Below are positions 61,646 to 63,715 of a DNA stretch of 64,000 bases, in pieces. The DNA is taken from the NCBI RefSeq assembly GCF_002252505.1, contig NZ_NNRL01000164.1, positions 186,001 through 250,000 of the forward strand, in the 5' to 3' direction. Both the position numbers and the translations under genes were made by a program. A model generated the notes under the pieces. It was not told the origin of the DNA. It saw only the letters and a program-made list of their open reading frames with translations, and ran no database searches. This stretch comes from Brucella grignonensis (GTDB taxonomy: Bacteria > Pseudomonadota > Alphaproteobacteria > Rhizobiales > Rhizobiaceae). The first letter of the stretch is position 1. Each line of letters starts with the position of its first letter.

Positions 61646-63052
61646 CTACGCGTTATTGCTCAGCCATTCCTGAAAATCAGTCAGCGCGCGCGCGGACAAT
61701 GCGCGCTTTTTCGCAATGGTCTTTTCCTTGCCGCGCAGCCGCTTGCCCTCGGTCTTTGGCACTTCAACCGGCGGGAACAGGCCGAAATTCACATTCATCG
61801 GCTGGAATGAGCGCTTGCCCGGTTCGTCCTCATCAGCAACGATGTGACCGCCGGTGATGTGGCCGAGAAGTGCACCAAAAGCCGTAGTCTGTGGTGGTGC
61901 AACAGGAGTTTTTCCAAGCTTTTCAGCAGCGGTGAAACGTCCGGCCAGCAAACCGATTGCCGATGATTCGACGTAACCTTCACAGCCCGTGATCTGACCA
62001 GCGAATCGCAGGCTATCGCGTGACTTCAACCGTAGCACATTATCGAGCAGCACTGGCGAATTGAGATAGGTGTTGCGGTGCAACCCGCCAAGACGCGCAA
62101 ATTCAGCATTCTCAAGGCCAGGGATCATCTTGAAGATACCGGTCTGAGAGCCGTATTTCAGTTTCGTCTGGAAACCGACCATGTTGTAGAGGGTGCCAAG
62201 TGCATTATCCTGACGAAGCTGCACGACTGCATAGGCTTTCACCGTCGGATTATGCTCATTGGTGAGGCCCATTGGCTTCATTGGCCCATGACGCAGGGTT
62301 TCAGGACCGCGTTCGGCCATGACTTCGATAGGCAGGCAGCCGTCGAAATAGGGCGTACCTTCCCATTCCTTGAACTCGGTCGTGTCGCCTTCGATAAGTG
62401 CGGCAACGAAAGCCTCATACTGCTCCTTATCCATGGGGCAGTTGATGTAATCCTTGCCGGTGCCACCGGGGCCAACCTTATCGTAGCGCGACTGGAACCA
62501 GCAAACATCCATATCGATCGAATCAAAATGAACAATCGGCGCGATGGCGTCGAAGAAGGCGAGTGCATCTGCACCGGTTTGTGCCTGAATGGCTTCTGCA
62601 AGCGAAGGCGCGGTTAGTGGACCCGTTGCGACAATCGTCGTGCCCCATTCTTCCGGTGGCAAGCCCGCGATTTCTTCGCGCTCAATGGTGATGAGTGGAT
62701 GAGCTTCGAGTTTTGCAGTTACCGCCTGCGAAAAACCTTCACGATCAACAGCCAAAGCGCCACCAGCCGGAACCTGATTTGCATCGGCGCATGCCATGAT
62801 CAGCGAGCCTGCAAGGCGCATCTCGGCATGAAGAACGCCGACAGCGTTGGTCTCTGCATCATCCGAACGGAAAGAATTTGAACAAACCAGCTCTGCCAGC
62901 TGCTCTGTCTTATGCGCATCTGTGCCGCGAACGGGGCGCATCTCGTGCAGAACAACGGGAACGCCAGCTTGCGCGATTTGCCACGCGGCTTCAGAGCCAG
63001 CGAGGCCGCCGCCGACAACATGTACTGGGGAGAGATTGGTATCTTTTGACAT
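61646..63052 (-). CDS. trmFO: Methylenetetrahydrofolate-tRNA-(uracil-5-)-methyltransferase TrmFO
   Basis: A 468-residue folate/FAD-dependent enzyme that makes 5-methyluridine 54 in tRNA, in place of TrmA. The FAD-binding start is [19 protein letters not shown] (9-27), followed by [31 protein letters not shown] with the catalytic Cys, [25 protein letters not shown] and [17 protein letters not shown] 63052 ([10 protein letters not shown]) is the canonical start with GGGAT upstream; an ORF extension to 63172 reads back into the hairpin array. Confidence 0.95.
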
Positions 63053-63134
63053 GGCAAATCCCATACCGCCTTTGCATGTCGCCTTCAATGGGAGAAGCGC
63101 ATCAGACGAGGGTAAACAGGTGCCACAAAAACAA

Positions 63135-63172
63135 ATGGCATCCGGCGCGGGAGGAGGTGCGACGGATGCCAT
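63135..63172 (-). ncRNA. CcsR/cuckoo-type hairpin 4, doubling as terminator
   Basis: On the minus strand: stem ATGGCATCCG / CGGATGCCAT (10 bp, extendable by one A-T pair) with CCTCCTCCC (complement of 63149-63157) in the loop. It is followed by TTTGTTTTTG, so it is also the transcript terminator. It is last of four such hairpins behind the DUF1127 gene. Confidence 0.8.
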
Positions 63173-63179
63173 TATTGTC

Positions 63180-63211
63180 AGACCGGAATTGGGAGGAGGA
63201 GAGACCGGTCT
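63180..63211 (-). ncRNA. CcsR/cuckoo-type hairpin 3
   Basis: Stem AGACCGG / CCGGTCT (7 bp), 18-base loop carrying the exact CCTCCTCCC motif on the minus strand (63191-63199). Confidence 0.75.
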
Positions 63212-63217
63212 TGGTAC

Positions 63218-63244
63218 CGCAAAGCTTGGGAGGAGGACTTTGCG
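63218..63244 (-). ncRNA. CcsR/cuckoo-type hairpin 2
   Basis: Stem CGCAAAG / CTTTGCG (7 bp), 13-base loop carrying CCTCCTCCC on the minus strand (63228-63236). Confidence 0.75.
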
Positions 63245-63251
63245 ATAAACC

Positions 63252-63279
63252 GGGCCTGATGGGAGGAGGATTCAGGCCC
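63252..63279 (-). ncRNA. CcsR/cuckoo-type hairpin 1
   Basis: Stem GGGCCTGA / TCAGGCCC (8 bp), 12-base loop carrying CCTCCTCCC on the minus strand (63261-63269). It begins 19 bases after the DUF1127 stop codon, so it is probably cut from the same transcript. Confidence 0.78.
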
Positions 63280-63298
63280 AGCAAATTTGAATGAGTTA

Positions 63299-63445
63299 TT
63301 AGCGTCCCTTGGACTGACGCGCTACATATGGGATGTCTGCGCGGGAAATGCCAAGGTCGTTAAGTTCGCGAGTCGAGAGCTGGTTCAGCTCGTTGACAGT
63401 ATCGCGGTAACGGCGCCAGTTGTTGTAAGAGCGGAAGAGGTTCAT
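63299..63445 (-). CDS. DUF1127 small protein preceding a CcsR-type array
   Basis: A 48-residue, basic protein. It reads MNLFRSYNNWRRYRDTVNE, then LNQLSTRELNDLGISRADIP and YVARQSKGR, the DUF1127 signature at family length. AGGAA lies seven bases before its ATG. In Rhodobacter sphaeroides a DUF1127 protein of the same kind (CcaF1) is encoded immediately before four CCUCCUCCC RNAs and helps their maturation as an RNA-binding protein; the same arrangement is seen here. Regulation there is by RpoH factors; here a TTATATACTG-type -10 candidate lies at 63501-63510, and I could not confirm a -35. Confidence 0.85.
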   Translation of the reverse strand: MNLFRSYNNWRRYRDTVNELNQLSTRELNDLGISRADIPYVARQSKGR

Positions 63446-63715
63446 GGTATTATTCCTTCATCGTTGAGGAACTGGTGTTCAATTCATCTTGTTTGTTGCC
63501 CAGTATATAACTCATTGTTTTCGCTACTTGCAGACCCGAGTTTGCATAGCTGCCTTGCGGGTTCTGCACGACGCGCTAAATCGATTAGACTGGTCGAGCA
63601 CAAAATTGCCGTAAAGGAACAAGACCTAACTATTTGCCGGCTGGCGAGTTTCCTATATGTTCTCAGCTACTTGGAATGTGTGTCGCATCAACAGATAGAT
63701 TGTTCGGGAGTTGTT
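63446..63715. other. Divergent intergenic region of the two last genes
   Basis: A 270-base gap between the DUF1127 gene and the DUF2157 gene. A possible -10 element for the DUF1127-hairpin transcript is at 63501-63510 (minus strand). Nothing else was recognised. Confidence 0.4.

What the first reader, a model, noticed from the sequence alone, without database searches (positions are those of the whole stretch)
63134..63280. Array of four CCTCCTCCC-loop hairpins: a candidate CcsR/'cuckoo' sRNA locus
Between a DUF1127 gene and trmFO, the minus strand carries four successive stem-loops (63252-63279, 63218-63244, 63180-63211, 63135-63172). The stems differ from one another, but every loop holds the identical nonamer CCTCCTCCC; spacing between motifs is 33, 37 and 42 bases. 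Preserved loops with unrelated, compensated stems suggest selection on the loop. The last hairpin has a T-run and ends the transcript. In Rhodobacter sphaeroides the ccaF1-ccsR1-4 locus has the same composition, and its RNAs act in oxidative stress and C1 metabolism. CCUCCUCCC resembles the anti-Shine-Dalgarno end of 16S rRNA, so titration of mRNA leaders or a protein is plausible.
Basis: partly seen in the sequence, partly recalled or inferred. Interest (0 to 1): 0.9.

Follow-up and report, generated by a model that had tools for sequence, protein, structure and literature searches.

The report
VtlR-linked cuckoo RNA hairpin array
Behind a tiny protein gene, this environmental bacterium carries four RNA hairpins that share one loop sequence able to mask ribosome-binding sites; it belongs to a known family of bacterial regulatory RNAs, and the part that may be new is a conserved promoter box that hints which regulator switches it on.

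Summary
Four stem-loops, each with loop CCTCCTCCC, lie at 63135-63282 (-) between a 48-aa DUF1127 gene and trmFO; 0 of 100 shuffles give four such nonamers. The array belongs to a known family, ar14/'cuckoo' RNAs: Rfam RF02344 matches above its cut-off. DUF1127, four stem-loops and trmFO are kept in 35 of 35 genus genomes (Brucella, Ochrobactrum clade). Stems covary (19 of 38 pairs with changes on both sides; shuffles 8.0) and 136 of 140 loops keep CCTCCC. In 45 of 57 other family genomes a listed ar14 match lies within 4 kb 5' of trmFO. The promoter may be new: 35 of 35 carry GCAGCTATGCA, fitting the published VtlR box, 107-114 nt before DUF1127, and all five ar14 loci above cut-off in this genome have such a box. 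Best explanation: a VtlR/LsrB-activated transcript encodes DUF1127 and, 3' of it, a four-loop anti-Shine-Dalgarno RNA that represses mRNAs with GGGAGGA-type ribosome sites, many for solute uptake. Transcription, VtlR binding and targets could not be tested. New member of a known kind.

The parts
63543..63553 (-). Putative VtlR/LsrB box GCAGCTATGCA (context A-N3-CA-N3-ATGC)
   Evidence: Present in 35 of 35 genus genomes 107-114 nt before the DUF1127 start; 13 of 15 letters of the reported VtlR motif CAATGCAGCCATGCA (my count); binding not tested
63505..63510 (-). TTATAT, likely -10 element
   Evidence: [T/C]TATAT in 35 of 35 upstream regions; the sigma-70 consensus scan found no promoter
63299..63445 (-). 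DUF1127 gene, 48 aa
   Evidence: ORF, PF06568 64.1 bits, ortholog in 35 of 35
63249..63282 (-). Hairpin 1, loop nonamer 63261-63269; outside the Rfam ar14 model
   Evidence: Fold, covariation helix 1, Rfam limits
63215..63247 (-). Hairpin 2, loop nonamer 63228-63236
63180..63211 (-). Hairpin 3, loop nonamer 63191-63199
63135..63172 (-). Hairpin 4, loop nonamer 63149-63157, likely also the terminator stem
63125..63134 (-). T-rich tail TTGTTTTTGT
   Evidence: Sequence; T-rich tail also in the aligned relatives
61646..63052 (-). trmFO, the downstream neighbour; not thought to be part of the RNA unit

Best explanation
The locus is a DUF1127-cuckoo RNA operon. A LysR-type regulator of the VtlR/LsrB kind activates one transcript of roughly 370 nt (about 63498 to 63125, estimated). 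Its 5' part is the mRNA of a 48-aa arginine-rich DUF1127 protein; its 3' part is an ar14/cuckoo RNA of four hairpins, cut out or kept as a 3'-UTR RNA. Each loop presents the same anti-Shine-Dalgarno seed CCUCCUCCC. The loops act redundantly: they pair with GGGAGGA/AGGAGG-type ribosome-binding sites and block translation, chiefly of solute-uptake and sugar-catabolism mRNAs. The last hairpin probably also ends transcription. Shown here: structure, covariation, loop conservation, synteny, the conserved box, and that GGGAGGA start sites are common. Inferred: co-transcription, VtlR binding, processing, repression of targets.
For: Rfam ar14 above cut-off. Synteny DUF1127-array in 35 of 35 genus genomes. 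Covariation 19 of 38 pairs against 8.0 in shuffles, 0 of 500. 136 of 140 loops keep CCTCCC. Box in 35 of 35; box in 14 of 15 standalone and 18 of 18 DUF1127-linked genus array loci against 26 of 249 control windows of 500 nt. Papers: NfeR1 of S. meliloti represses by redundant aSD loops and is LsrB-activated (PMC10746234); VtlR activates three DUF1127 genes in B. melitensis (PMC12595884) and atu1667 in Agrobacterium (PMC7486931). GGGAGGA-N3-9-ATG 115 sites against 8 for the reversed pattern; transport proteins 12 of 23 against 4 of 20 for AGGAGGA (p 0.03).
Against: No expression data. The degenerate box occurs by chance in about one 500-nt window in ten (26 of 249), and the 11-letter form has 15 genome hits against 8 for its reverse. 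The S. meliloti form TGCA-N6-GCAT was not found before the own-genome arrays tested. Outside the genus the box is patchy: at -73/-74 in 5 of 15 standalone loci, in 7 of 14 DUF1127-linked loci, strict form in 4 of 80 trmFO-upstream regions. Genus loci are orthologs or paralogs, not independent. ntrB, a known NfeR1 target, has no GGAGG here. The target samples are small and AGGAGGA is not a clean control; for solute-binding proteins alone p is 0.06.
Confidence: 0.55

Rival explanations
1. The same operon and RNA family, but switched on by another regulator (for example a heat-shock-type sigma factor as in Rhodobacter); the conserved box serves something else.
For: ccaF1-ccsR1-4 has an RpoHI/RpoHII promoter (PMC10253847); box patchy outside the genus; RpoH-type promoters were not tested here.
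Against: An 11-letter block is invariant in 35 of 35 genomes at a near-fixed distance and fits the published VtlR box.
Confidence: 0.2
2. The loops are a binding platform for a protein (the DUF1127 protein itself or another RNA-binding protein), with mRNA pairing secondary.
For: CcaF1 is an RNA-binding DUF1127 protein that takes part in CcsR maturation (PMC10253847); the DUF1127 gene is coupled to the array in 35 of 35 genomes; array size varies up to 16 hairpins in relatives, as for a sponge.
Against: NfeR1 works through loop-mRNA pairing (PMC10746234); Salmonella YjiS shows no RNA binding and short DUF1127 proteins act through PhoR in Agrobacterium (PMC12501420, passages); three of five own-genome arrays have no DUF1127 next to them.
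Confidence: 0.15
3. A cis-acting element only: terminator or 3'-UTR stabiliser of the DUF1127 mRNA, or leader of trmFO.
For: It lies between the two genes; hairpin 4 looks like a terminator.
Against: Four loops with one seed are not needed for termination; in relatives the ar14 match can lie 0.6-1.6 kb from trmFO, and three own-genome arrays stand alone.
Confidence: 0.07
4. A repeat artefact, a mobile repeat element, or coding sequence (an N-terminal extension of trmFO read from 63172).
For: The trmFO frame is open up to an ATG inside hairpin 4 (508 aa); hairpin number varies among relatives.
Against: Syntenic position in 35 of 35; RNA-type covariation; the distance from the last loop to trmFO changes between relatives by numbers not divisible by three (166, 164, 163, 158 among others).
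Confidence: 0.03

Closest known systems
ar14 / cuckoo RNA family (Rfam RF02344; NfeR1, SmelA075 three hairpins, SmelA099 four hairpins)
   Same: Adjacent hairpins with CCUCCUCCC loops and variable stems; score above the family cut-off; four-hairpin form already described (PMC3927594)
   Different: Behind a DUF1127 gene; the box lies before that gene and not just before the array as in NfeR1; hairpin 1 is outside the Rfam model
ccaF1-CcsR1-4 of Rhodobacter sphaeroides (CIN1 type)
   Same: DUF1127 gene followed on the same strand by CCUCC-loop RNAs (PMC10253847)
   Different: CcaF1 has 71 aa and the promoter is RpoHI/RpoHII; four sRNAs (two stem-loops described for RS0680a) against one four-hairpin array here; 48-aa protein and VtlR-like box here
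VtlR/LsrB regulon (AbcR sRNAs, short DUF1127 genes such as BAB1_0914 and atu1667)
   Same: Short DUF1127 gene behind a VtlR-type box; AbcR RNAs also carry anti-Shine-Dalgarno motifs (PMC8844928)
   Different: In the passages that I read a cuckoo array behind the DUF1127 gene is not mentioned; for atu1667 the authors leave open whether it is a protein or an sRNA (PMC7486931). Whether the window gene is the ortholog of BAB1_0914 was not tested

Membership tests
ar14/cuckoo RNA | Rfam RF02344 score at or above 58.8 bits | tested here: met
   75.5 bits, full model
ar14/cuckoo RNA | Two or more adjacent hairpins with identical CCUCCUCCC loops and variable stems | tested here: met
   Four; stems covary
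ar14/cuckoo RNA | Expressed as a small RNA | not testable with these tools
   No transcript data held
ar14/cuckoo RNA | Represses mRNAs through loop pairing at the ribosome-binding site | not testable with these tools
   Only complementarity counted; ntrB lacks the match
CcaF1-CcsR (CIN1) | DUF1127 gene directly upstream on the same strand | tested here: met
   Window; 35 of 35 genus genomes
CcaF1-CcsR (CIN1) | Cluster of four separate sRNAs | tested here: not met
   One array of four hairpins with a single T-rich tail after the last
CcaF1-CcsR (CIN1) | RpoHI/RpoHII promoter | not tested
   No RpoH model was run
NfeR1 proper | LsrB box about 60-72 nt before the transcript, with the array first in the transcript | tested here: not met
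   In the window the box lies before the DUF1127 gene, 288 nt before the first loop; three other loci of this genome fit
VtlR/LsrB regulon | Box GCAT-N3-TG-N3-T | tested here: met
   35 of 35; degenerate pattern, 26 of 249 control windows also have it
VtlR/LsrB regulon | Direct binding and activation by VtlR/LsrB | not testable with these tools
   Needs gel shift or mutant RNA data

The most novel reading that the evidence does not exclude
In the Ochrobactrum clade of Brucella the whole cuckoo RNA set (all five ar14 loci of this genome) and the short DUF1127 genes form one VtlR/LsrB regulon, so that the unannotated multi-seed RNAs, and not only AbcR2 or the DUF1127 proteins, carry out much of what VtlR does. 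That would help to explain why putting back the four known targets did not restore a vtlR mutant (PMC12595884).
Probability: 0.35. Interest if true: 0.65.

Novelty: new member of a known kind. Interest (0 to 1): 0.42.

Why it matters
The RNA family is known, but the locus links three lines that the passages I read treat mostly apart: VtlR/LsrB regulators, short DUF1127 proteins, and cuckoo/ar14 RNAs. If the arrays behind DUF1127 genes and the standalone arrays are VtlR-driven, a set of broad anti-Shine-Dalgarno regulators may be missing from VtlR models built on annotated genes. It also warns that deleting or overexpressing a DUF1127 gene with its transcript may change an sRNA too. Arrays of up to 16 hairpins beside trmFO in relatives suggest that the number of seeds matters.

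Tried and rejected
Chance (0 of 100 shuffles), coding extension of trmFO, terminator only, trmFO leader and mobile repeat: see rivals. Hairpins with control loop cores in the same 80 upstream regions: CCTCC 186, against GGAGG 6, CTTCC 8, CCGCC 11.

The NfeR1 target ntrB as a conserved target: not supported; its start region here is AGAAAGGTCGCATG (the gene is named from its position behind the DusB match, no family search was run on it). Autoregulation of DUF1127 or trmFO by the loops: duplexes of a 12-nt loop with their start regions are weak (-4.9 and -8.3 kcal/mol).

I first thought that the strict box had exactly the published VtlR targets (three DUF1127 genes + AbcR2). Of 15 GCAGCYATGCA hits (reversed pattern 8), three lie before short DUF1127 genes; a fourth with the full box (C69:122999, L123) has no Rfam match above cut-off, so it could not be called AbcR2 and I dropped the argument (the notebook entry still states it). 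An earlier count said 8 of 14 DUF1127-linked family loci have the box; the count is 7 of 14.

The target comparison is weak: 30 of 115 GGGAGGA and 30 of 70 AGGAGGA sites were fetched, in contig order; 23 and 21 have frames of 60 aa or more; 23 and 20 were scanned (L371 left out). AGGAGG is itself partly complementary to the loops, and several of the 23 are neighbours.

The script stopped with an error at L069 (no motif); one search repeated it and dropped L069, so 33 of 34 genus loci and 29 of 29 family loci were scored. 'DUF1127-linked' or 'standalone' there rests on a simple protein pattern within 500 nt.

Papers not held: PMC4615179 (cuckoo RNA family, 2015), PMC8034643 (CcaF1, 2021), PMC3346310 (cited as reference 27 for the ar14 family in PMC10746234), a DOI that I recalled for a 2021 paper on LsrB and sRNAs of Agrobacterium, and PMC7585064 (DUF1127 in Agrobacterium, 2020). 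One of them may already report parts of the VtlR/LsrB link.

Full report
What is there. On the minus strand at 63135-63282 four stem-loops follow one another, each with CCTCCTCCC in its loop. The nonamer occurs nowhere else in the window, and 0 of 100 shuffles gave four. The fold is far more stable than shuffles (z -9.2). A 48-aa DUF1127 gene ends 16 nt before hairpin 1 and trmFO starts 82 nt after hairpin 4. Rfam has one match at or above cut-off in the window, ar14 (RF02344), at 63133-63250 (-), 75.5 bits; its three-hairpin model covers hairpins 2-4, so hairpin 1 is an extra module.

Where it comes from. The genome held has 4.83 Mb in 169 contigs. A DUF1127 identical to the window's is found in Brucella pituitosa; the genome with the nearest trmFO, 99% (G011), has a contig of the same length, 2,505,989 bases, as that record. 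So the window is from the Ochrobactrum clade of Brucella, close to B. pituitosa. The genus set of 35 genomes (own included) also holds contigs whose lengths equal those of Falsochrobactrum records.

Conservation. trmFO was located in 35 of 35 genus genomes and the DNA before it fetched. All 35 have a DUF1127 gene of 47-48 aa followed by the array. In the alignment of the 35 arrays (34 distinct rows) 98.4% of pair cells form standard pairs; 19 of 38 pairs show changes on both sides, against 8.0 +/- 1.5 in shuffles (0 of 500) and 1 to 5 when partners are slid. The shuffles do not keep relatedness, and the structure came from this same alignment, which favours it. Helix 1 has most exceptions (94.7% paired). 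Of 140 loops, 121 keep the exact nonamer and 136 keep CCTCCC; in four the core is broken. Nonamer columns are more conserved (0.960) than stems (0.899) and other columns (0.767).

Wider family. ar14 matches above cut-off occur in 35 of 35 genus genomes (3 to 8 matches each at E 0.001). In 61 genomes drawn from the family (two of the genus), 60 have a match and 56 one above cut-off; 0 of 14 control genomes rang. In 45 of 57 family genomes outside the genus with trmFO located, at least one listed ar14 match lies within 4 kb 5' of trmFO on the same strand, 70 of 139 listed matches. In about 900 nt before trmFO of 80 of the 142 non-genus genomes with a trmFO match (regions, one cut short), 48 of 80 hold at least two CCTCC-loop hairpins, 8 hold one and 24 none; the largest arrays have 16 (L171), 9 (L151) and 8 (L166) hairpins. 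The site beside trmFO thus looks like an old home of this RNA family, and hairpin number changes, apparently by tandem multiplication (inference from the repeated loop and stem pattern).

Promoter. In the alignment of the 35 upstream regions the longest invariant block before the ribosome site is GCAGCTATGCA, 107-114 nt before the DUF1127 start, followed by [T/C]TATAT. Its context fits A-N3-CA-N3-ATGC in 35 of 35, the reverse complement of the box GCAT-N3-TG-N3-T that PMC7486931 calls confirmed in B. abortus (passages), and in the window matches 13 of 15 letters of CAATGCAGCCATGCA (PMC12595884, passages; my count). In this genome such boxes lie before three short DUF1127 genes; two (window; C50:102.4 kb) carry an array directly behind, the third (C66:558 kb) does not. 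The other three ar14 loci stand alone, with a degenerate box 72-74 nt before the first loop. Over the genus loci scored, 14 of 15 standalone arrays have the box at one place (-70 to -72) and 18 of 18 DUF1127-linked arrays have one upstream; 26 of 249 control windows of 500 nt have one. Against this: the 11-letter pattern alone has 15 genome hits and its reverse 8; the S. meliloti form TGCA-N6-GCAT was not seen before the own arrays tested; outside the genus the box is patchy (5 of 15 at -73/-74 and 9 of 15 anywhere in 500 nt; 7 of 14; strict form in 4 of 80 fetched regions, many of which do not reach the DUF1127 promoter).

How it most likely works. NfeR1, the founding ar14 member, has three such loops that redundantly repress targets at their ribosome sites, and is activated by LsrB, the Sinorhizobium counterpart of VtlR (PMC10746234, passages and one section; PMC8844928, passages). 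VtlR loss lowers three DUF1127 genes about 50-, 100- and 17-fold in B. melitensis, and putting these genes and AbcR2 back did not restore the mutant (PMC12595884). The simplest reading is that VtlR/LsrB drives a DUF1127-cuckoo transcript here whose four loops silence mRNAs with purine-rich start sites. GGGAGGA-N3-9-ATG occurs 115 times in this genome (reversed pattern 8) and AGGAGGA 70 times (reversed 10). In samples of 30 each, transport proteins are 12 of 23 against 4 of 20 and solute-binding proteins 8 of 23 against 2 of 20 (p 0.03 and 0.06), in line with the uptake genes proposed for NfeR1. This is a lead only: GGAGG is also the common ribosome site (established knowledge), and ntrB, the one NfeR1 target that I examined here, lacks the match.

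What is known. The loop motif, the three- and four-hairpin forms and stress induction in S. meliloti are in print (PMC3927594, one section and passages), as are the DUF1127-CcsR association, labelled CIN1 (PMC10253847, passages), LsrB on the NfeR1 promoter, and a conserved promoter stretch in NfeR1 homologs that included Brucella (PMC10746234). Searches joining DUF1127, VtlR, LsrB and cuckoo/ar14/aSD terms (also 68, no paper) listed none that, in the passages that I read, joins VtlR, DUF1127 and the arrays; a review of Brucella sRNAs has no occurrence of ar14, NfeR1 or cuckoo (PMC9751625, term search only). Five papers that matter are not held, so no priority is claimed.

Verdict. A real new member of a known kind, with one testable link, VtlR/LsrB to the whole cuckoo set, that may be new.

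Noticed in passing
L171 (G056, 836 nt before trmFO): Sixteen CCTCC-loop hairpins in a row before trmFO, the largest array seen.
   Followed up: no
L003 (own genome C50:240 kb): A standalone ar14 array with, on the opposite strand nearby, a single further CCTCCTCC hairpin; the box lies between the two. Several genus genomes have two ar14 matches on opposite strands about 0.7 kb apart (e.g. G010:C44).
   Followed up: partly
L005 2336-2420 (+), own genome C50:102 kb: A glycine riboswitch (RF00504, 60.9 bits) lies beside the second DUF1127-array locus.
   Followed up: no
own genome, GGGAGGA start sites on C50 (L329-L331, L337, L338): Neighbouring genes with GGGAGGA ribosome sites include sugar-catabolism families (TPP enzyme, PfkB kinase, GFO/IDH/MocA oxidoreductase, class II aldolase, xylose-isomerase-like).
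   Followed up: no
L258, L268 (records titled Bacillus subtilis SK6B4) and L208 (MAG titled Xylophilus sp.): These records hold Brucellaceae-type DUF1127 loci (77-78% and 96% identity), probably mislabelled or contaminated assemblies.
   Followed up: no
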